Virus record (IMG/VR): IMGVR_UViG_3300045902_000666
Location: 37,744 to 101,743 of that record
Origin: a virus
Reading direction: 5' to 3' (one strand)
DNA length: 64,000 nucleotides
Position 1 is the first letter of the stretch; every line of letters begins with the position of its first letter. Both the position numbers and the translations under genes were made by a program. This document shows positions 13,439 to 32,420 of the stretch, piece by piece. Under the pieces are notes generated by a model that did no database searches, was not told where the DNA came from, and saw only the letters and a program-made list of their open reading frames with translations.

Positions 13439-13447
13439 TTTTTTTTG

Positions 13448-13521
13448 TGATTCCGATAGGACTTGAACCTACAACCCTCTCCTTAGGACGGAGTAGCTCT
13501 ATCCAGTTGAGCTACGGAACC
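13448..13521 (-). tRNA. tRNA-Arg (CCU anticodon)
   Basis: 74-nt cloverleaf. Acceptor GGTTCCG/CGGAATC, loop GTCCTAA gives anticodon CCT, reading AGG. One mismatch at the base of the anticodon stem. Supplies a codon that an AT-rich phage needs and is served by the phage ArgRS. Confidence 0.85.
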
Positions 13522-13522
13522 A

Positions 13523-13807
13523 TTAATTTTGAGAATCCTGAATATCTTTCCAGATTTGTTTATCTATAACATGTTTTGGTGTTCTCTCATATTTCAGATA
13601 TGAACACATTGGACAAGAACAAGGAGTGGAAGTCCATTTTAAAAATGTCCACATTTCCCCTTTTCTAATCTTGTCTCTAATCTCAGCGGAAGTCATTCTC
13701 TCCCATCCAAAATATTGATGCTGATTAGCAGGAACCCAAATTTTAAGACGCTTCTCAAATTTACATTTTTCTTTCCAGCGTCTTTCAGCTCTTTTTAAAT
13801 TTTTCAT
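13523..13807 (-). CDS. Small Cys-rich phage protein (CSCxMC motif)
   Basis: 94 residues. Basic N-terminus (RAERRWKEKCKFEKR) and a central TPCSCPMCSYLK motif with three clustered cysteines, as in a widespread group of small unstudied proteins that end in a CSCxMC metal-binding-like site. Directly downstream of its own TATTTATA box and a hairpin leader. Function unknown. Confidence 0.55.
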   Translation of the reverse strand: MKNLKRAERRWKEKCKFEKRLKIWVPANQHQYFGWERMTSAEIRDKIRKGEMWTFLKWTSTPCSCPMCSYLKYERTPKHVIDKQIWKDIQDSQN

Positions 13808-13810
13808 TTT

Positions 13811-13880
13811 ACCTCAGATTTTGTCAGAGGTAGAGTGAATTGAGGACTTTCCTTATCACCCTACCTCATCGTTTGAGGTA
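13811..13880 (-). promoter_or_regulatory. Leader with two ACCTC/GAGGT hairpins
   Basis: The untranslated leader of the 13807 gene holds TACCTCA-TCGTT-TGAGGTA (13861-13880) and a second ACCTC...GAGGT pair (13817-13836). The arms of the two hairpins are alike, so alternative pairings are possible, as in an attenuator. Confidence 0.35.
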
Positions 13881-13910
13881 ACGAGCTTTATATGTTTTGT
13901 GAGTATTCAT
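13866..13910 (-). CDS. Possible 14-codon leader peptide
   Basis: ATG 8 bp downstream of a TATTTATA box; reads MNTHKTYKARYLKR then TGA. The last codons fall in the leader hairpin. Too short to be sure it is translated. Confidence 0.25.
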   Translation of the reverse strand: MNTHKTYKARYLKR

Positions 13911-13917
13911 AATTTTC

Positions 13918-13925
13918 TATAAATA
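13918..13925 (-). promoter_or_regulatory. TATTTATA box
   Basis: Upstream of the leader and the CSCxMC gene, 8 bp before an ATG. Confidence 0.45.
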
Positions 13926-13935
13926 TACGACTTTT

Positions 13936-15141
13936 TTAAACATTATCCACTTCAAAAAGACCAATTTTTTTCATACCAACATACAAATCAGACATTAACT
14001 TGAAAAACATTACTTTGTTTTCTTCATTGCCAGATATATGATGTGTTGTATACAAAGAATTAATCTCTTTACATAATTCAACCAAAGCTTGAAATAAAAC
14101 ACTTGGGTTTAGAGCTGCTTTAGCTTTAATATAAGCGTACTTAATCTCTGGCTTGATAAAATCATCAGCCGAATGGTTTAAATCAACTCCAGCACTTTTT
14201 AAACGAGCCATAGTATAACTTAAATATAATCCGGGAGAATTTTTATGATTCTTCATCAAACTCATATCAAAAGTCTTATCTGACTTTGGCGAGCCTCCCA
14301 AAATATATCCTGCAAAAATGTTATAGGCTAATTTTTCATCACCATTAAACTCTTCTTTTAATTCTTCCATAAAATCTGAAAGATAAACAACATTACGAAG
14401 ACGTGTAGACATTTTACCATTTGCAGATGGAATCATTTTATTTGACTTCAATTTAACAAGCCCCAATCCTACATGTGTTATATGAGGATAAACTTTATTT
14501 AAAAGTTTAAAATGATTCTCTTGTTCATATCCAGTCAAATAAAGAGTATCATCATTTAAAAGAGATGCCAATGCTAAATCCTGATAAAAATAAGAAGTAG
14601 AACCATCTTTTTTTATTACAACAATTTTTTCTTCTCCAGCCTCAACTATTTTTGTTCCTTCATATTCTCCTTCTCCATCTTTCAATTCACCTCCATATTT
14701 CATTTCGGAAGCAAAGAAAATTTTATCTACTTTATAGTCAAAATTTTTACAGTGTTCTTTGAATTTTTCCAAAGCTTCTTCTTTAGAAACATCACCAGTT
14801 AATGTATCTCCAAGCATAGAAACATATTCTTCAGCGACTCCAAGTTTCTGAAATGCTTTAGCTAAAATTAAATTTGAAAAGTGGCCAATATGTAAATGTT
14901 TATTAAGATTTGGGCTGAACCCATCCATGTATTTGAACTTTTTTTCCCCTATAAACATTTTACCAAAATCTGTTTTTTCAGTAGGGAAAAAATTGGTGTA
15001 TCCTTTTTCTTTTTGAATTATAAAATTGCAAGACTCTGCTAGGTTTAAAACTTCTTGTGTTGGTTCGCCAAATACACAAAACCCAAATCCTTTATTAAGA
15101 TTAGAAGGTATTACTTTAAATAAACTCGAATCTGTTGACAT
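13936..15141 (-). CDS. argS: Arginyl-tRNA synthetase (compact)
   Basis: About 401 residues from MSTDSS; the longer frame would run through a tRNA-like gene. Class I aminoacyl-tRNA synthetase: HIGH motif as LHIGHFSNL (residues 83-91), KMSKS-type loop as GKMSTRLRNVVYL, and ArgRS hallmarks YVSMLGDTLTGD, SYFYQDLALASLL and LYLSYTMARLKSA. A shortened DALR-like helical anticodon domain ends the protein. It lacks the N-terminal Add1 domain of cellular ArgRS (usually 550 residues or more). Lies among phage tRNA-Arg genes (CCU, UCU), which it probably charges when host translation is disturbed. Confidence 0.85.
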   Translation of the reverse strand: MSTDSSLFKVIPSNLNKGFGFCVFGEPTQEVLNLAESCNFIIQKEKGYTNFFPTEKTDFGKMFIGEKKFKYMDGFSPNLNKHLHIGHFSNLILAKAFQKLGVAEEYVSMLGDTLTGDVSKEEALEKFKEHCKNFDYKVDKIFFASEMKYGGELKDGEGEYEGTKIVEAGEEKIVVIKKDGSTSYFYQDLALASLLNDDTLYLTGYEQENHFKLLNKVYPHITHVGLGLVKLKSNKMIPSANGKMSTRLRNVVYLSDFMEELKEEFNGDEKLAYNIFAGYILGGSPKSDKTFDMSLMKNHKNSPGLYLSYTMARLKSAGVDLNHSADDFIKPEIKYAYIKAKAALNPSVLFQALVELCKEINSLYTTHHISGNEENKVMFFKLMSDLYVGMKKIGLFEVDNV

Positions 15142-15156
15142 TGTTTTTGTTTTTTG

Positions 15157-15247
15157 TACAGGAGGAGGGATTCGAACCCCCATTGGCATTGCTGCTTCAA
15201 CTCCAGTTACGGATAAAAGTTTAGAAAACTTCCTCGGTTACACCTGC
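15157..15247 (-). tRNA. Atypical tRNA-like element (class II size)
   Basis: 91 nt. Keeps an acceptor stem (GCAGGTG/CTCCTGT, one mismatch) and a perfect T arm with TTCGAAT loop, but the D arm is missing. A GAAGT/ACTTT stem with loop TTTCTAA would give anticodon UCU (Arg), followed by a long variable arm. Could be a degenerate tRNA or a tRNA mimic. Confidence 0.45.
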
Positions 15248-15255
15248 ATATTTTG

Positions 15256-15328
15256 TGACCCGAACAGGAATCGAACCTGTGACCGACTGCTTAGAAGGCA
15301 GTTGCTCTATCCCCTGAGCTACCGAGCC
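15256..15328 (-). tRNA. tRNA-Arg (UCU anticodon)
   Basis: 73-nt cloverleaf; acceptor GGCTCGG/TCGGGTC, anticodon stem ACTGC/GCAGT with loop CTTCTAA, anticodon UCU reading AGA. Confidence 0.9.
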
Positions 15329-15334
15329 ATATTT

Positions 15335-15520
15335 TTATTCATCTTCTAAATCTACAATCACATAAAATTTGACTATAGATTTTTCTTTGAGAATTTTTAG
15401 TTTAGGATTTTCATATCCTTTTTCTAAAGCTCTCTTTCTATACTTTTCATAAACCGTATCAAAATCTTTTTCAATTTCTTTACGTTTTATTTTTCCAATA
15501 TAAAACATTCTCTGTTCCAT
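15335..15520 (-). CDS. Small protein between tRNA genes
   Basis: About 61 residues from MEQRMF, or 57 from MFYIGKI. Highly charged helix (KRKEIEKDFDTVYEKYRK) then a short beta pair (IVKFYVIVDLEDE). Starts 3 bp after the tRNA-Ser(GGA) gene; earlier ATGs fall inside that tRNA. Not recognised. Confidence 0.45.
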   Translation of the reverse strand: MEQRMFYIGKIKRKEIEKDFDTVYEKYRKRALEKGYENPKLKILKEKSIVKFYVIVDLEDE

Positions 15521-15522
15521 CT

Positions 15523-15611
15523 CAGAGAGTGAGAGATTCGAACTCTCGCATCGTTTTACCGACCTACTTCCTTTCCAGGGAAGCCCCTTACAACCACTTG
15601 GGTAACTCTCT
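15523..15611 (-). tRNA. tRNA-Ser (GGA anticodon)
   Basis: 89-nt class II tRNA; acceptor AGAGAGT/ACTCTCT, discriminator G, loop CTGGAAA giving GGA (UCC/UCU), long variable arm. Confidence 0.9.
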
Positions 15612-15622
15612 ATAAATTTATC

Positions 15623-15687
15623 GGCTGAAGAGTGGATTCGAACCACTAAATAGCTAGTACGTACTTAACTATCCTTCCAACTTCAGC
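15623..15687 (-). tRNA. Mini tRNA-like element
   Basis: 65 nt. Perfect 7-bp acceptor GCTGAAG/CTTCAGC and a perfect T arm AGTGG-TTCGAAT-CCACT, but only 33 nt between them, with one short hairpin (TAGT/ACTA) and no regular anticodon loop. Looks like a D-arm-less or anticodon-less tRNA relative. Confidence 0.45.
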
Positions 15688-15693
15688 ATCTTG

Positions 15694-15783
15694 CGGAGAG
15701 ATAGGGATTCGAACCCTAGGTACAGGTTTACCCCGTACAACAGCTTAGCAGGCTGCCCCGATAGACCACTCTGGCATCTCTCC
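15694..15783 (-). tRNA. tRNA-Ser (GCU anticodon)
   Basis: 90-nt class II tRNA; acceptor GGAGAGA/TCTCTCC, discriminator G, loop CTGCTAA giving GCU (AGC/AGU). Confidence 0.9.
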
Positions 15784-15794
15784 AAATTATTTCG

Positions 15795-15865
15795 CACAGG
15801 TGGAGAGATTCGAACTCCCGTCAACGGTTTTGGAGACCGCTATTCTACCACTGAACTACACCTGT
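15795..15865 (-). tRNA. tRNA-Trp (CCA anticodon)
   Basis: 71-nt class I tRNA; acceptor ACAGGTG/CACCTGT, discriminator G, stem GCGGT/ACCGT with loop CTCCAAA, anticodon CCA. Confidence 0.9.
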
Positions 15866-15873
15866 ATATTTTG

Positions 15874-15963
15874 CACGTTGGGAAGGATTCGAACCCTCGA
15901 AGAGTTAATTACACTCTTTACAGTTTTGGAGACTGCTGCCTTCAACCACTCGGCCACCAACGT
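15874..15963 (-). tRNA. Serine-type class II tRNA with Trp (CCA) anticodon
   Basis: 90 nt. Acceptor ACGTTGG/CCAACGT, discriminator G, D arm GCC-GAGTGGTTGAA-GGC and a 6-bp long variable arm AAGAGT/ACTCTT are features of tRNA-Ser. The anticodon arm GCAGT-CTCCAAA-ACTGT carries CCA, with the same seven-base loop as the neighbouring tRNA-Trp. It would be expected to be charged with Ser (identity lies in the long arm) yet read UGG. Confidence 0.75.
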
Positions 15964-15969
15964 ATTTTG

Positions 15970-16054
15970 TGGAAGGTGTGAGATTCGAACTCACGGACCC
16001 CGAAGGGCCTCTAGTTTTCAAGACTAGTGCAATAGACCGCTCTACCAACCTTCC
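15970..16054 (-). tRNA. tRNA-Ser (UGA anticodon)
   Basis: 85-nt class II tRNA; acceptor GGAAGGT/ACCTTCC, stem CTAGT/ACTAG with loop CTTGAAA, anticodon UGA (UCA). Discriminator reads A, unusual for tRNA-Ser. Confidence 0.85.
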
Positions 16055-18730: not shown

Positions 18731-18830
18731 GTGAACTACCCACCCACGCCAGAGGCGATGGGTTGGGCTTCAAGGGTCAACGCTCCTACCAACGTAGGCA
18801 ACTTACCTTGATTTTTCCTATCCGTTCCAG
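18711..18830 (-). ncRNA. Predicted omega-RNA of element A (approximate ends)
   Basis: TnpB partners use an RNA made from the end of tnpB and the right end, with the first bases beyond the element as guide. Here the right-end fold is ACCCA-T-CGCC-TCT-GGCG-TGGGT, ending GTTCAC; the guide would begin AGAATGCTGTAATTG. Ends are estimated. Confidence 0.45.
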
Positions 18831-19908
18831 ATAAGATATTTTTTAATGCAAATGATTTAATGTTTATGGCAGCATTTACATCTCTTGAAACTAAACCCCC
18901 ACACTTAGGGCAAGTCCATTCCCTATCGGATAGGGTTAGGTCCTTGTTTATATACCCGCAATTTGCGTGTAGCTTAGATGATGGTTCAAATCTACCAATT
19001 TTCAGAATGTTTTTTCCGTACCATTCTGCCTTGTATTCCAACATTGTTACGAAGGTTGACCAACTCGCATCACTTATTGATTGCGCAAGTTTGTGGTTCT
19101 TTACCATATTGGAAACCGCTAAATCTTCAATCGCTAAACTATCGTGGTTCTTGATTAGTTCACTTGAAGTTTTATGTAGAAAGTCTTTTCTTTGATTAGC
19201 TACTTTTTCGTGGATTACGGCTAATTTTTGCTTTGTTCTTTTACCTTTATGTTTTGAGTATTTGCGTTGTACATACTTTAATTTAGATTGTGCTTTACAA
19301 AGGTGTTTTGGATTTTCAAACTCTTTTCCGTCAGATGCGACAAGATATGTTTTAATTCCTAAATCAATTCCAATTGTTGTATTTTCTCTAACCCTTGCTT
19401 TTGGTTTTGCATCTTCTCCTGTATCACATAGTATTGAAACAAAATATTTTCCTGTCGGTGTTCTGCTTATTGTCGCTTGCCTAATCGCACCTTTAATTGG
19501 TCTGTGTACAACAATATCAATTCCTTTCCTGAACTTTGGGATAACCAACTTGCCGTTTTTTAATGAAACATTTTGTGGAATATTGAAACTACCACCGCTT
19601 GATTTCTTTTTAAATTTTGGAAACTTGTTTTGCCCTTTAAAAAATGCAGTGTATGATTTGTCTAAGTTAGTTATTGATTGTTGCAAAGATTGACTGTTAA
19701 TTTCTTTAAGCCATTCGCATTCTGTTTTAAGGTCTTTTAACTGGCTGTGCAAAGCAAAACAACTTAAATTAATCTTGTAACCTGCCCAAGCCATTTGCTT
19801 AACTTCTAAAGCGAGATTATACACAAAACGACTTGCTCCGATATGCTTATTAAGCAAGACGGTTTGTTCTTTTGTAGGGGTTAATCTATATTTAAAAGCT
19901 TTTAACAT
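18736..19908 (-). CDS. tnpB: TnpB RNA-guided nuclease
   Basis: 390 residues from MLKAFKYRLTP. OrfB/TnpB architecture: N-terminal HTH_OrfB region (QTVLLNKHIGASRFVYN), then RuvC-like motifs GIDLGIKTYLVA (first Asp), SLAIEDLAVSNM (Glu) and RDVNAAINI (last Asp). The zinc ribbon has CPKCG but the first pair reads H-A-N-C instead of C-x-x-C. TnpB proteins are ancestors of Cas12 and cut DNA next to the element's target motif using an omega-RNA. Its own promoter (TTTG-N19-TATATTTG) is of host type. Confidence 0.9.
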   Translation of the reverse strand: MLKAFKYRLTPTKEQTVLLNKHIGASRFVYNLALEVKQMAWAGYKINLSCFALHSQLKDLKTECEWLKEINSQSLQQSITNLDKSYTAFFKGQNKFPKFKKKSSGGSFNIPQNVSLKNGKLVIPKFRKGIDIVVHRPIKGAIRQATISRTPTGKYFVSILCDTGEDAKPKARVRENTTIGIDLGIKTYLVASDGKEFENPKHLCKAQSKLKYVQRKYSKHKGKRTKQKLAVIHEKVANQRKDFLHKTSSELIKNHDSLAIEDLAVSNMVKNHKLAQSISDASWSTFVTMLEYKAEWYGKNILKIGRFEPSSKLHANCGYINKDLTLSDREWTCPKCGGLVSRDVNAAINIKSFALKNILSGTDRKNQGKLPTLVGALTLEAQPIASGVGG

Positions 19909-19924
19909 CAATTATAAATATGTG

Positions 19925-20213: not shown

Positions 20214-20277
20214 AGCCTGATAATAAAACAGGGCTTCTAATTTTTATCTATTTATTTTTCATAACATTTATTTTTTG

Positions 20278-20348
20278 TGCGAGTAATGGGATTCGAACCC
20301 ATGAACAAGCTTTTAGAGAGCTTCACTTTACCACTAAATTATACTCGC
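20278..20348 (-). tRNA. Suppressor tRNA (CUA anticodon, reads UAG)
   Basis: 71-nt regular cloverleaf. Acceptor GCGAGTA/TACTCGC, discriminator A, D stem ATTT/AAGT, anticodon stem AAGCT/AGCTT with loop CTCTAAA, so positions 34-36 are CUA. T arm ATGGG-TTCGAAT-CCCAT. Reads the amber codon. Amino acid not certain. Several genes here end in TAG, so suppression must be partial or timed. Confidence 0.8.
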
Positions 20349-25427: not shown

Positions 25428-25530
25428 GTCAATTACCCACAGCTAAAGCAGGTGGGCTTGTAACTGACTTCTCAAATGAAAAGTCGCTACCATAGGCAGA
25501 TTGACCTCTACCCAATAAACGAATGTTTAA
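25408..25530 (-). ncRNA. Predicted omega-RNA of element B (approximate ends)
   Basis: Right-end fold CCCAC-CT-GC-TTTA-GC-T-GTGGG ending AATTGAC; the guide would begin TTAAGCAAGCAAG. Ends are estimated. Confidence 0.4.
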
Positions 25531-26553
25531 AGCACCATTAAAATCAGCATTAGAAGAATGAACGCAAGCCCTACATACAAATTCACTTTGACTTTTCCTA
25601 TTGGCCTTTTCAATATGCCCGCATTGACTACATCTCTGCGAAGTATATTGAGGATTAACAAGCAAAACTGGAACGCCAGCAATCTGCGCCTTGTAGGTTA
25701 TGAAACTTCTCAACTGATTAAAAGCCCAAGAACTTTGTTTGGCTCTTTGATTATGCCTAACCTTTGTCCTCGTTCTTATGCCACTCAAATTCTCAATGGC
25801 AATAGCCCGATTCGTGTCTTTGGCAACCTTAACAAGTTCTTTGCTTATTTTATGGTTAGTATCTTTTTTAAATTTCGCTTCTTTACCAGAAATTTTTTTA
25901 AGTCGTCTTTTAGCAGATTTCGTTCCAACTGCCTGCAATTTGGCTCTGAGGTTAGAATACCATTGTCGTATTTCTTCTGTTTGTTTTCCAGAATAACTTT
26001 TACCATCAGAAGTAGTTGCTATTTGTACAATACCAAAATCCACACCCAATACATCTTCAAAATCATTAACATTTTCATCAGGAATTTCACAAGTAGCAAG
26101 CAAATAAAATGTACCTTTAATGTATGCAAGGTCGCTTTCTCCTTGCTGATATTTCAAAAGTTTTTCCTGTCTTTGCCCAATCAGATAGGGAATGATTTGC
26201 CTGCCGTTTACAGTCCAAATACTTACTTCTTTTCTAATAGTTTTATATCTCAAAATACGGCTATCGTAAGCAATGCAGCCATACTTTTTGAATATTCTTT
26301 TTGTATCTTTATCTTTTTTGTAGGCATCCGCTACTTTTCCTATGCAACGAACAATCATCTGGGCAGAAAGTTTGAAAGAAGATTTGAGGCGATAATAAAT
26401 TTGCTTTTGCAAATCATATTTACTGAATACTTTTTTCTCAAAAGCATAATAGGAAATTTCCTGACAAGCAGTATTCGCCTCTTTCAAAGTATCAAGGAGA
26501 AACTTATTTTGTTCTTTTGTAGGATTAAGTTTTATTTGCGCAGTTAATTTCAT
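25429..26553 (-). CDS. tnpB: TnpB RNA-guided nuclease
   Basis: 374 residues from MKLTAQIKLNPTKEQ. RuvC motifs VLGVDFGIVQIAT (Asp), RAIAIENLSGIR (Glu), SNADFNGALNI (Asp). Complete zinc ribbon CSQCG...CRAC. Longer N-terminal part with VIWTVNGRQIIPY-like WED/REC region. Only distantly similar to the TnpB at 18736. Its stop codon lies in the right end of the element, as is usual. Expected to cut at TTCAC-flanked sites with the omega-RNA. Confidence 0.9.
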   Translation of the reverse strand: MKLTAQIKLNPTKEQNKFLLDTLKEANTACQEISYYAFEKKVFSKYDLQKQIYYRLKSSFKLSAQMIVRCIGKVADAYKKDKDTKRIFKKYGCIAYDSRILRYKTIRKEVSIWTVNGRQIIPYLIGQRQEKLLKYQQGESDLAYIKGTFYLLATCEIPDENVNDFEDVLGVDFGIVQIATTSDGKSYSGKQTEEIRQWYSNLRAKLQAVGTKSAKRRLKKISGKEAKFKKDTNHKISKELVKVAKDTNRAIAIENLSGIRTRTKVRHNQRAKQSSWAFNQLRSFITYKAQIAGVPVLLVNPQYTSQRCSQCGHIEKANRKSQSEFVCRACVHSSNADFNGALNIRLLGRGQSAYGSDFSFEKSVTSPPALAVGN

Positions 26554-26557
26554 AATG

Positions 26558-26588
26558 CAAAAATACAAAATTATTTAATTCAACCAAA
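26558..26588 (-). promoter_or_regulatory. Host-type promoter of tnpB (element B)
   Basis: TTTG, 19 bp, TATTTTTG in the element's left end. Confidence 0.7.
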
Positions 26589-29515: not shown

Positions 29516-31111
29516 TTAATCTAACTTAGAGTAGTTATTGATTGTGTTAATCAAAACATTCTTGTCTTGCTCTGCAACCTTCATAAGGTCAAAAACTTTT
29601 TCAGAGAAACCAGCTAAGGTTATAACTCTTTCGCCTTTGAACTGAAGTGTTGGAGAACCTTGCAAGTCAAAGTTATATACGAATGGGTTACATCCATATT
29701 TTGACTTATATTGGTTCAAGTATGTTTGACTAGCATCCATTTGCTGCCAAGCTTCACCGTCAGAAAGAATAATCAATCTGTCGTATTTCTTGTTCAACTT
29801 TTGGAAGAATGCGTGATAGCTTGTACCACCCATATTCTTATGATTGAACTGCTTGTTAATTGTGAATATACTATCTCTCAAAGAGAAGTTAGTATATTCA
29901 GCTGCTGTACCGAACAATACAACATCAGCGTTATTAGACTTAGCTAAGATAGCTGCAAACAAACCACCAATTTGTGTTGGTCTTCCGCTCATAGAGCCAG
30001 AACGGTCATAAATAACACAGGTTTCACCTGGTAATTTTGGAACGTTCTCGCAAGCGATTTCAATTGCATCTTCAAGAGCTTGAACAATTTTTCTTGATTC
30101 CTTGGAACCAAATTTGTTAATCTCTTCAATTGCAGTTGTGAATCTGAATGGAAGAACCAAAGAGTTTCTAATTAACTTAACATCAACCAAAAGTGCACAT
30201 GCTTCATCTACAAGCTCTGGAGCTTGAGTCATGATGTTTCTTAAGTTCTTCAAAAGAGCCATGTAACTGATTTTTCTAGTCTTAATCAAAGATGCCCAAG
30301 CCTCCTTTTTCAATTCATCTTTTTCATCTTCTGATTCAGCTTTCTTACCAGCTTCAGACAACTTAGCTTCCCAAGTTTGAGTGTTCTTAAGAGCACCAAT
30401 CATCAAAGCCTCAATAGCATTGATTGGGTATGTTTCTTTCTTAGAAGCTTTAACTTTTTTAATCAAAGCTTTTAATTCTGCAACTCTTTCTTTATTCTTT
30501 CTTGCGGTAGCATTTTCCAAAGAAGCATTTAATGTTTCTAGGTACTCTGCTCTATCAACTTCAACCATACCGTTATGCTCTACGTAAGATGGGTGAACGA
30601 TATTAGCAACGTCAATCAAGGAAATTTCTTTACCTTCACCACGATATTTAGCTAATTGATAAGCATCAAATTTTTCGAATGCTTTAGCAAAACCTTTCTT
30701 TAAAGAGTTTGGCAATGACTTATTTTTCTTGTTACCGAAGTAAACAGAGATAATTTCAGTCATGTCATCTGGTCTACGTACAACTTGTGCATAGAACTCT
30801 TTACCCCAAGGCTGACCAGAAATATACTTAGCAAGCTCTGCTCCTAATACGTGAGTAATAGAACGCATACCGAACTCGTTTCTTGCATAAATAGCTGCCT
30901 TAGCTGCAAATTTTGCATCTACTTTAGATAAGCAAGCAGACATTCTGTTAAGAGTATCATTGCTTGTTCTGTAGAACTGGTCCTCAACAAAAGATGTTAA
31001 AAGGATAGTAACCAATTCTAATTCTGCAGACTTTGTGTAAGCCTGACCACCTGCATAATTCACTGTTGGAATTCCTGAGGTTGGAGTTTTTTTGGTGTTG
31101 AACTTTGACAT
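29516..31111 (-). CDS. Ro60 / TROVE-domain RNA-binding protein
   Basis: 531 residues. N-terminal TROVE domain of helical HEAT-like repeats forming an RNA-binding ring (TILLTSFVEDQFYRTSNDTL, AAKAAIYARNEFGMRSITHV, LPNSLKKGFAKAFEKFD) and a C-terminal von Willebrand A domain with the MIDAS motif DRSGSMSG, TSYH and LSDGE. Ro60 and its bacterial homolog Rsr bind Y RNAs on the outer surface and misfolded RNA ends in the hole, and in bacteria help PNPase in RNA decay. Preceded by tandem Y-RNA-like genes, so a complete phage Ro RNP appears encoded. Confidence 0.95.
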   Translation of the reverse strand: MSKFNTKKTPTSGIPTVNYAGGQAYTKSAELELVTILLTSFVEDQFYRTSNDTLNRMSACLSKVDAKFAAKAAIYARNEFGMRSITHVLGAELAKYISGQPWGKEFYAQVVRRPDDMTEIISVYFGNKKNKSLPNSLKKGFAKAFEKFDAYQLAKYRGEGKEISLIDVANIVHPSYVEHNGMVEVDRAEYLETLNASLENATARKNKERVAELKALIKKVKASKKETYPINAIEALMIGALKNTQTWEAKLSEAGKKAESEDEKDELKKEAWASLIKTRKISYMALLKNLRNIMTQAPELVDEACALLVDVKLIRNSLVLPFRFTTAIEEINKFGSKESRKIVQALEDAIEIACENVPKLPGETCVIYDRSGSMSGRPTQIGGLFAAILAKSNNADVVLFGTAAEYTNFSLRDSIFTINKQFNHKNMGGTSYHAFFQKLNKKYDRLIILSDGEAWQQMDASQTYLNQYKSKYGCNPFVYNFDLQGSPTLQFKGERVITLAGFSEKVFDLMKVAEQDKNVLINTINNYSKLD

Positions 31112-31184
31112 AATTTTTGTCTTTTTAAAAGTTAAACTTTGTTTTGTTTTTGTTTTTATATGTTAATTTAGGACATATACAAAT

Positions 31185-31316
31185 AAAAAAGGGATACCGT
31201 TTTGCAACAGTATCCCTTCTAAAGCTTTGCGGGATTGATGATGTGGGTGTCTTTTTTGAAATTTTCAGAATTTTCGAAGTAACCCAGTATCTTGCCACAC
31301 AATTTCCTACGGTCAG
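31185..31316 (-). ncRNA. Y-RNA-like gene 2
   Basis: 5' arm GTGTGGCAAGATAC-TGGGT-TACTTCG (31275-31300), 3' arm GAC-ACCCA-CATCATC-AATCCC (31231-31251): stem TGGGT/ACCCA extended by GAT/ATC past a small bulge, as in the Ro-binding helix of Y RNAs (animal Y RNAs also read TGGGTTA). Ends with an 11-bp terminator GGGATACTGTT-GCAA-AACGGTATCCC. Shares 'GTTACTTCG' and 'CAAAAAAGACAC' with copy 1. Confidence 0.65.
31191..31216 (-). terminator. Terminator of Y-RNA-like gene 2
   Basis: Perfect 11-bp stem with GCAA tetraloop and T6 on the minus strand. Confidence 0.85.
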
Positions 31317-31319
31317 GCT

Positions 31320-31473
31320 AACAAAAAACAGCCGAAACTGTTCAGGGTATTGCCATCCCGTTTATATAACTTTAGTAGGGATAAGTACAGTGAGTGTCTT
31401 TTTTGTAATAAGCATTTACGAAGTAACTCAACCGTTTGCCACTACTTAATATCAATATGTTTAAAGAACTAAA
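31320..31473 (-). ncRNA. Y-RNA-like gene 1
   Basis: Starts just after a phage-type promoter. 5' arm GTGGCAAACGGT-TGAGT-TACTTCG (31419-31442), 3' arm GAC-ACTCA-CTGT-ACTTATCCC. Compared with copy 2 the core pair changes from TGGGT/ACCCA to TGAGT/ACTCA, a compensated change. Outer helix ACGG/CTGT with one bulged T. Ends with AACAG-TTTCGG-CTGTT-TTTT (31327-31342). No ORF. Confidence 0.65.
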
Positions 31474-31479
31474 GGAACA

Positions 31480-31508
31480 ATTATACGCAAATATACGAAA
31501 AAGGTTCC
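31480..31508 (-). promoter_or_regulatory. Phage-type promoter of the Y-RNA/Ro60 unit
   Basis: GGAAC, 18 bp, GCG-TATAAT; predicted start about 31473. Confidence 0.8.
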
Positions 31509-31599
31509 ATAAAAATCAATTTTTTTTTAAAATTTTTTTGAGGGATTGGTGTAGAGAGTATTGTGAACTACCCGTTGCCTAAAGGCGAAGGGGCTTCAA

Positions 31600-31815
31600 A
31601 TAGAGGTAAATGAGAATATCACTTACATATTTTGAACTTTTCGTACTTCAACGATTCCTTTTCTCTGACAAGTCAGAGTTGTGCAGGACATCTCGATACG
31701 CTCAACAGGTCGTCCCAAACCTTGAACTTAATTCGCACAAATATTTTAATATGTTTGAAGGTTTTACGGAAACACAATTTTGTTTCCAACCAAAATACCT
31801 CAAAGAACTTATTTG
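31600..31815 (-). ncRNA. Structured RNA inside the IS relic
   Basis: Downstream of a host-type promoter: hairpins GGAAACA-6-TGTTTCC, GGAC...GTCC and CTCTGAC-TT-GTCAGAG, running into the right-end hairpin. Could be a stand-alone guide RNA (omega-RNA) usable by TnpB A in trans. Limits approximate. Confidence 0.4.
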
Positions 31816-31845
31816 CAAATATACAACAATTATTTCAAAATGCAA
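31816..31845 (-). promoter_or_regulatory. Host-type promoter inside the IS relic
   Basis: TTG, 19 bp, TATATTTG. Confidence 0.55.
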
Positions 31846-32420
31846 GTGATATTAGGAGGTCGCTTACATCCCCTTGCCTAAAGGCGAAGGGGTTTTACGC
31901 TCAAATAGATAAAAAATTTTGGACGTTGGGATAGTTTGGTTAAGCGACATCAATTTATCCTTACGCATAAAGTTTAGAGATTTACTGTAAGGTATGACCG
32001 TATACGTTTTAAGTCTATATACATCGACTGTAGCTTAGTAAGGTCAGCTAACTTTACCCTACGCTTTAGGATTCGTAACTCCCACATGGCTTTTGTAGTC
32101 ACAGAAAAAGCGTGAACCGTTTCTGCCCTCTAATCAGCTTCACAGGAATGGCCTCCACTGATTAAACCGTACAACTTCATTAGACTTTCATCCTCCATTA
32201 TACAGCTTGTTTTCATGATATTTGTTTATACGAAGTATCTCAAACACCTTGCCACAACATTTCCAAAATTTCAATTACTCAAAGAACAATCATTATATAT
32301 AGTTGCAAATTTATAAAATCTTATGAATATAGAAAAATTTTTTTCATTTTTTTTATAAGTTGCTGATAATCAGATAGAAAAATTTTTTTTAATTTATTTT
32401 TACCTAACAAAAACACGACT

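What the first reader, a model, noticed from the sequence alone, without database searches (positions are those of the whole stretch)
29516..32290. Phage Ro60 with three related Y-RNA-like genes
A full TROVE/vWA protein is preceded by three RNA units sharing GTGGCAA...TTACTTCG and a 3' ATCCC block. Copies 1 and 2 show a compensated base pair (TGAGT/ACTCA versus TGGGT/ACCCA) in the predicted Ro-binding helix, each with a bulge, and each ends in its own terminator. Animal Y RNAs carry the same TGGGTTA/TGAGTTA core. A phage-specific promoter drives the unit, so a complete phage RNP that could divert host RNA decay or stabilise phage RNA is plausible.
Basis: partly seen in the sequence, partly recalled or inferred. 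Interest (0 to 1): 0.85.

Follow-up and report, generated by a model that had tools for sequence, protein, structure and literature searches.

The report
Phage Ro60 with its Y RNAs
A large bacteria-infecting virus carries its own version of the Ro60 RNA-binding protein together with several small partner RNAs (Y RNAs), one of them enlarged about fourfold, and the partner RNAs may also switch the protein's gene on and off.

Summary
ORF 29516-31111(-) is a Ro60: TROVE E 4e-21, and the 13 best structural matches of its model are Ro60/Rsr, one from a Thermus phage. Upstream lie three Y RNA units. A covariance model built without any sequence from this phage finds copy 2 (E 5e-8) and copy 1 (E 0.0035) as its two best hits in 64 kb, plus two more outside the window. 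Related loci from huge phages and Bacteroidota keep the same helix, with 12 of 14 pairs changed on both sides. Copy 3 is not a small Y RNA: its Y stem closes at long range over about 290 nt, and 21 relatives have the same layout with a multi-helix domain instead of YrlA's permuted tRNA. Other copies in related phages sit in tRNA arrays, some as classical YrlA, some fused to an unpermuted tRNA body. Expression, binding and function are untested. Phage Ro60 and phage Y RNAs are known kinds; this is a new variant.

The parts
29516..31111 (-). Ro60/Rsr protein (TROVE + vWA with MIDAS residues D369-x-S371-x-S373, T430, D451)
   Evidence: Pfam, PHROG, PDB sequence search and Foldseek on an AlphaFold2 model
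31187..31220 (-). Intrinsic terminator between Y copy 1 and Ro60; a terminator lies 60-92 nt before Ro60 in 20 of 21 relatives
31225..31302 (-). Y RNA copy 1
   Evidence: CM R2, E 0.0035, full length; MFE fold
31323..31343 (-). Modest terminator after copy 2 (AACAG/CTGTT, then T run)
   Evidence: fold; not called by the scan
31372..31446 (-). Y RNA copy 2
   Evidence: CM R1 E 3.5e-6, R2 E 5.2e-8
31370..31383 (-). Copy 2 3' strand TATCCCTACTAAAG, candidate antiterminator partner
31211..31224 (-). Terminator 5' arm CTTTAGAAGGGATA, candidate antiterminator partner
31487..31495 (-). Promoter-like TATATTTGC followed by TTCTTT, before copies 2 and 1
31540..31815 (-). RNA B: unassigned RNA-like segment whose ends pair (TTTGAGG/CCTCAAA) and which ends in ACACCAATCCC; possible degenerate Y RNA
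   Evidence: fold only; not found by R1 or R2
31815..31823 (-). Promoter-like TATATTTGC before RNA B
31917..32272 (-). Giant Y RNA (copy 3): Y stem 32272-32231 with 31945-31917 around about 290 nt
   Evidence: best duplex partner within 500 nt, MFE closing stem, same architecture in 21 relatives
32305..32313 (-). Promoter-like TAAATTTGC before copy 3

Best explanation
The locus encodes a complete phage Ro60 particle: one Ro60/Rsr protein and at least three Y RNAs upstream of it, two small and one giant, with two more Y-like copies elsewhere in the record. The Y stem (lower helix, one bulged base, GTGG..GAGTTACTTCG box, upper GAG/CTC helix) is the Ro60 binding site. The distal part of each RNA sets which partner or substrate is brought to the Ro60 ring. 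By analogy with Deinococcus, where Y RNA tethers Rsr to PNPase and gates substrates, the phage particle most likely steers decay or quality control of structured RNA (tRNA, rRNA) in the infected cell; the giant Y RNA carries a different adaptor domain. Shown here: protein fold, RNA helix conserved by covariation, strand and place fixed next to Ro60. Inferred: binding (about 0.9), separate stable transcripts (about 0.75), RNA-decay or quality-control role (about 0.45), the partner nuclease being host PNPase (about 0.3). The confidence given is for the identity of the parts and Ro60-Y RNA binding.
For: Ro60 fold and family. R1, built from 21 relatives only: 95% of cells paired, 29 double-change cells versus 6.4 in shuffles; it finds window copies 2 and 1 and nothing else at E up to 10 in 64 kb. 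R2, again without this phage: 12 of 14 pairs with double changes, 61 cells versus 18.8; window copies 5e-8 and 0.0035, record copies 7e-6 and 0.009. All 31 and all 12 hits in other Ro60 loci are on the Ro60 strand. The core motif occurs 59 times sense and once antisense within 700 nt upstream of 38 Ro60 genes. Giant-stem covariation: 97.6% paired, 18 double-change cells versus 2.9. Rfam YrlA matches relatives at the same cores.
Against: No expression or binding data. Copy 1 is only moderately significant; copy 3 rests on a long-range pairing whose duplex energy about 3.6% of windows in 64 kb reach. No Rfam match to a Y family in the window. The A2 rows were picked by a motif, so the conserved lower stem there is partly ascertained; the upper helix and the A6 lower stem are less so. 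No RtcB, RNA ligase or PNPase turned up among the window proteins scanned, about 28 ORFs.
Confidence: 0.82

Rival explanations
1. Cis-acting attenuator: the Y stems before Ro60 sense free Ro60. With no Ro60 bound, the 3' strand of Y copy 2 pairs with the terminator's 5' arm and RNA polymerase reads into Ro60. With Ro60 bound, the Y stem holds and the terminator forms. This need not exclude a trans role.
For: In the window, 13 of 14 nt complementary, duplex -19.3 kcal/mol, reached by 3 of 12,795 windows (site not excluded). In the nascent transcript the antiterminator pairs have probability near 1; with the terminator 3' arm added the MFE returns to Y stem plus terminator, -67.6 versus -61.4. 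In 20 relatives the Y1 3' strand matches the terminator 5' arm over 6-9 nt, elsewhere in the leader usually 4-6; L030, L020 and L036 keep it with different bases. Terminators precede Ro60 in 20 of 21 relatives.
Against: Thermodynamic model only; in relatives 7 nt is weak against a 9-12 bp terminator; about ten relatives show a mismatch at the next position; the resemblance could reflect a terminator derived from a Y stem.
Confidence: 0.3
2. The RNAs are decoys: Y RNAs with tRNA-like bodies, lying in tRNA arrays, soak up host anticodon nucleases or modification enzymes and protect the phage's tRNAs, with Ro60 as stabiliser.
For: YrlA-type and tRNA-chimeric Y RNAs sit among phage tRNA genes in LR745206, G001 and G005, and one lies beside tRNA-Asn in the window's own record. 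The idea was raised for YrlA in PMC7790460.
Against: Window copies 1 and 2 have no tRNA-like body, and the distal domain of copy 3 is not clearly tRNA-like.
Confidence: 0.15
3. Chance or artefact: AT-rich noncoding DNA with repeated motifs and no functional RNA.
For: Copy 2 and copy 3 folds are no more stable than shuffles (z 0.35 and -0.96).
Against: Independent covariance-model hits, strong covariation, strict strand bias.
Confidence: 0.02

Closest known systems
YrlA, bacterial Y RNA (Rfam RF02553)
   Same: Ro60-binding stem made by the 5' and 3' ends with a distal effector domain, gene next to rsr; several relatives here (L024, L017, L048, L041, L046) match RF02553 and carry the permuted T-arm/acceptor/D-arm.
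   Different: All matches lie below the gathering score. Window copies 1 and 2 have a short single-stranded loop instead of the tRNA-like domain; copy 3 and the Y2 RNAs of relatives carry a roughly 190-290-nt multi-helix domain.
Deinococcus radiodurans Rsr / Y RNA / PNPase (RYPER)
   Same: Same protein family and the same tether logic is plausible.
   Different: No PNPase seen in the window; no evidence of a complex.
Phage Ro60 and phage Y RNAs: Thermus phage phiLo Ro60 (PDB 9L5Y, 9KOP), mycobacteriophage Y RNAs (Chen 2014, as cited in PMC12282133), proposed Y RNAs in Listeria phage CKA15
   Same: Phage-borne Ro60, and for the last two Y RNAs as well.
   Different: The Bacteroidota-type huge-phage clade, giant Y RNAs and Y/tRNA chimeras were not found described in the papers searched.
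Vertebrate Y RNAs
   Same: Stem of the RNA ends with bulge(s) as the Ro60 site.
   Different: A review (PMC4726728) calls bacterial Y RNAs not homologous; the shared GGGTTA core is recalled, not tested.

Membership tests
Ro60/Rsr protein | TROVE domain | tested here: met
   PF05731 E 4.2e-21
Ro60/Rsr protein | C-terminal vWA with MIDAS residues | tested here: met
   D369, S371, S373 and D451 invariant and T430 nearly so in 30 homologues; PF25045 8.7e-5, under its cut-off
Ro60/Rsr protein | Ro60 ring fold | tested here: met
   model pLDDT 83, pTM 0.80; 13 best PDB matches all Ro60/Rsr, TM about 0.53-0.69
Ro60/Rsr protein | binds Y RNA | not testable with these tools
   needs biochemistry
Bacterial/phage Y RNA | conserved stem of the RNA's 5' and 3' ends with a bulge, adjacent to Ro60 | tested here: met
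Bacterial/phage Y RNA | independent structural homology to other Y RNAs | tested here: met
   one CM unites window copies, huge-phage copies and loci that match RF02553
YrlA (RF02553) in the strict sense | gathering score | tested here: not met
   no hit in the window; relatives at most 41.8 bits against 69
YrlA (RF02553) in the strict sense | circularly permuted tRNA-like domain | tested here: not met
   absent from copies 1 and 2; not seen in copy 3; present in L058, L071, L024, L017
RYPER-type complex | distal domain binds PNPase | not testable with these tools
   no interaction data

The most novel reading that the evidence does not exclude
The phage Y RNAs are dual: trans-acting scaffolds for Ro60 (including a giant Y RNA with a new adaptor domain) and, in cis, a Ro60-sensing attenuator in which the Y stem's 3' strand is the antiterminator of the Ro60 gene, so that occupancy of Y RNA by Ro60 sets Ro60 supply.
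Probability: 0.25. Interest if true: 0.85.

Novelty: new variant of a known kind. Interest (0 to 1): 0.7.

Why it matters
Ro60 is a human autoantigen whose job in bacteria and phages is largely unknown. A clade of huge phages that keeps Ro60 and several covarying Y RNAs as one unit implies that the particle pays off during infection, and gives small, testable RNAs. The giant Y RNA shows that the Y stem is a module onto which other domains are grafted, and the terminator complementarity makes the regulation of Ro60 by its own RNA directly testable.

Tried and rejected
Rfam at gathering score: only tRNAs in the window; permissive hits (SurA, RefA1, sau-31) are chance-level and not used. DNA similarity of the noncoding block to phages: nothing beyond short matches. 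A known large-RNA identity for the giant Y distal domain: none in Rfam at E up to 2. Other Ro60 phages (Vibrio pv27, Arthrobacter Atuin, Caulobacter CcrColossus, Rhizobium RHph_TM39, a crAss-like Bacteroides phage, Bacillus G): no convincing hit with R1 or R2, best about 0.04-0.09. RNA B as a fourth Y RNA: rejected as unproven. 'Phage-specific promoter': TAnnTTTGC alone is not enriched (24 sites, 20 expected), but the only three composite TAnnTTTGC..TTCTTT sites in the window lie here (0.5 expected). Chen 2014 and the Sim and Wolin reviews could not be opened, so novelty relative to them is not fully checked.

Full report
Setting. The window is part of a 101.7-kb virus record with phage replication genes: DnaB-like helicase, DNA polymerase, ribonucleotide reductase, exonuclease and a sigma factor. 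The nearest annotated-collection Ro60 relative, 49% identical, is in a 635-kb uncultured phage, LR745206. Close relatives otherwise come from IMG/VR contigs of up to 476 kb and from bacterial assemblies, mostly Saprospiraceae and other Bacteroidota.

Protein. ORF 29516-31111(-) has TROVE and vWA domains. Its AlphaFold2 model (pLDDT 83) matches Ro60 and Rsr structures and nothing else at E below 0.001, among them Ro60 of Thermus phage phiLo. The MIDAS residues are conserved across 30 homologues.

Three copies. Reading the minus strand, GTGGCAA boxes lie at 32255, 31442 and 31298 and ATCCC blocks at 31932, 31382 and 31235. The lower stems differ in sequence (GTTG/CAAC, AGTAG/CTACT, TTGTG/CGCAA), yet each fits its own 3' strand over 5-6 contiguous pairs and fits the others over only 1-2. 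Minimum-energy folds of copies 1 and 2 recover this helix with a single bulged base.

Independent test. Relatives' upstream regions carry CCAGTAGTGAnnnnnGAGTTACTTCG...CACTC...CTCTGG. Their alignment has a helix with 95% of cells paired and 29 double-change cells against 6.4 in shuffles. The model from these 21 sequences alone finds in the whole window only copies 2 and 1. A second, broader model (20 sequences from phages and bacteria, none from this record) has double changes at 12 of 14 pairs and finds copy 2 at 5e-8, copy 1 at 0.0035, and two further copies in the record outside the window at 7e-6 and 0.009. All hits in other Ro60 loci are on the Ro60 strand (31 of 31 and 12 of 12). A plain motif count gives 59 sense against 1 antisense upstream of 38 Ro60 genes. 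Caveat: the first alignment was collected with a motif, and the second partly from model hits, so conservation is partly ascertained; the covariation of the upper helix is not forced by this. E-values from these shortened calibrations are rough, and some loci are closely related to each other.

The giant Y RNA. Downstream of the small Y RNA, 21 relatives carry a second core, CATAGCGATAGTTTGAGATACTTCG, whose 3' partner lies about 190-290 nt further on. Unsupervised RNAalifold finds the stem (GCAAACA/TGTTTGC and TAGTTTGAG/CTTAGGCTA); counted, 97.6% of cells pair, with 18 double-change cells against 2.9. Some changes are wholesale (GAGGACA/TGTCCTC, GAAGGCA/TGCCTTC). Window copy 3 has the same layout: its 3' partner is the best duplex partner within 500 nt and the MFE fold closes AAATTTTGGA/TCCAAAATT plus GTTG/CAAC. 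The enclosed domain is multi-helical, matches no Rfam family at E up to 2, and is not clearly tRNA-like. In two other contexts the same Y stem carries tRNA bodies: the classical permuted YrlA form (L058, L071, L024) and, in three huge phages (L059, L060, L070), an unpermuted anticodon arm plus T arm inside the Y stem.

Transcription. The only three composite TAnnTTTGC..TTCTTT sites in the window precede copy 3, RNA B and copies 2+1. A strong terminator separates copy 1 from Ro60, and 20 of 21 relatives have one 60-92 nt before Ro60. This favours separate transcripts, with Ro60 made by read-through or from its own weak promoter.

A possible switch. The 3' strand of copy 2 is complementary to the 5' arm of the Ro60 terminator (14 nt, one mismatch), -19.3 kcal/mol, as strong as only 3 of 12,795 windows, the site itself not excluded. 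In the model the nascent RNA prefers this antiterminator; the finished RNA prefers Y stem plus terminator by 6 kcal/mol. Relatives, whose Y sequence is different (TCTGGTC), have a terminator arm with the matching GACCAGA, 6-9 nt, and three loci keep extended pairing with other bases. Binding of Ro60 to the Y stem would favour termination. This is inference from sequence and energies.

What is known. Bacterial Y RNAs tether Rsr to PNPase in Deinococcus (PMC7790460, PMC4726728). Phage Ro60 proteins are known (PHROG 850; PDB 9L5Y). Y RNAs were reported in mycobacteriophages and proposed in a Listeria phage (PMC12282133). I found no description of huge-phage Y RNAs, giant Y RNAs or the attenuator idea in the papers searched, but the central reviews were not available.

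Verdict. Observation confirmed and extended; interpretation supported; function inferred.

Noticed in passing
L059 197-302, L060 222-337, L070 209-323: Y stem whose distal part is an unpermuted tRNA body (anticodon arm and T arm), in tRNA arrays of three huge phages; ARAGORN calls two of them tRNAs.
   Followed up: partly
L071 81-230 (phage csAssE-Sib, OR575929): Unannotated YrlA-type Y RNA about 370 nt upstream of the annotated Ro sixty-related protein in a human-gut phage (R2 E 2.7e-5).
   Followed up: partly
window 31571-31596 and 31870-31895: A 26-nt hairpin (CCCCTTCGCCTTTAGGCAAGGGG) duplicated 299 nt apart in the noncoding block, one copy after the giant Y RNA and one inside RNA B near its 3' end; role unknown.
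   Followed up: no
window 20277-20348(-): tRNA with CTA anticodon (possible amber suppressor); use of TAG as a sense codon not checked.
   Followed up: no
window 13936-15189(-): ORF with a weak arginyl-tRNA-synthetase match beside the tRNA array at 13447-16054.
   Followed up: no
window 18736-19911(-) and 25429-26568(-): Two IS605-type TnpB ORFs.
   Followed up: no
L068 3656-4537 and L069 2356-3414: Long noncoding gaps next to the TROVE gene in a crAss-like Bacteroides phage and in Bacillus phage G; no hit with R2, perhaps diverged Y RNAs.
   Followed up: partly
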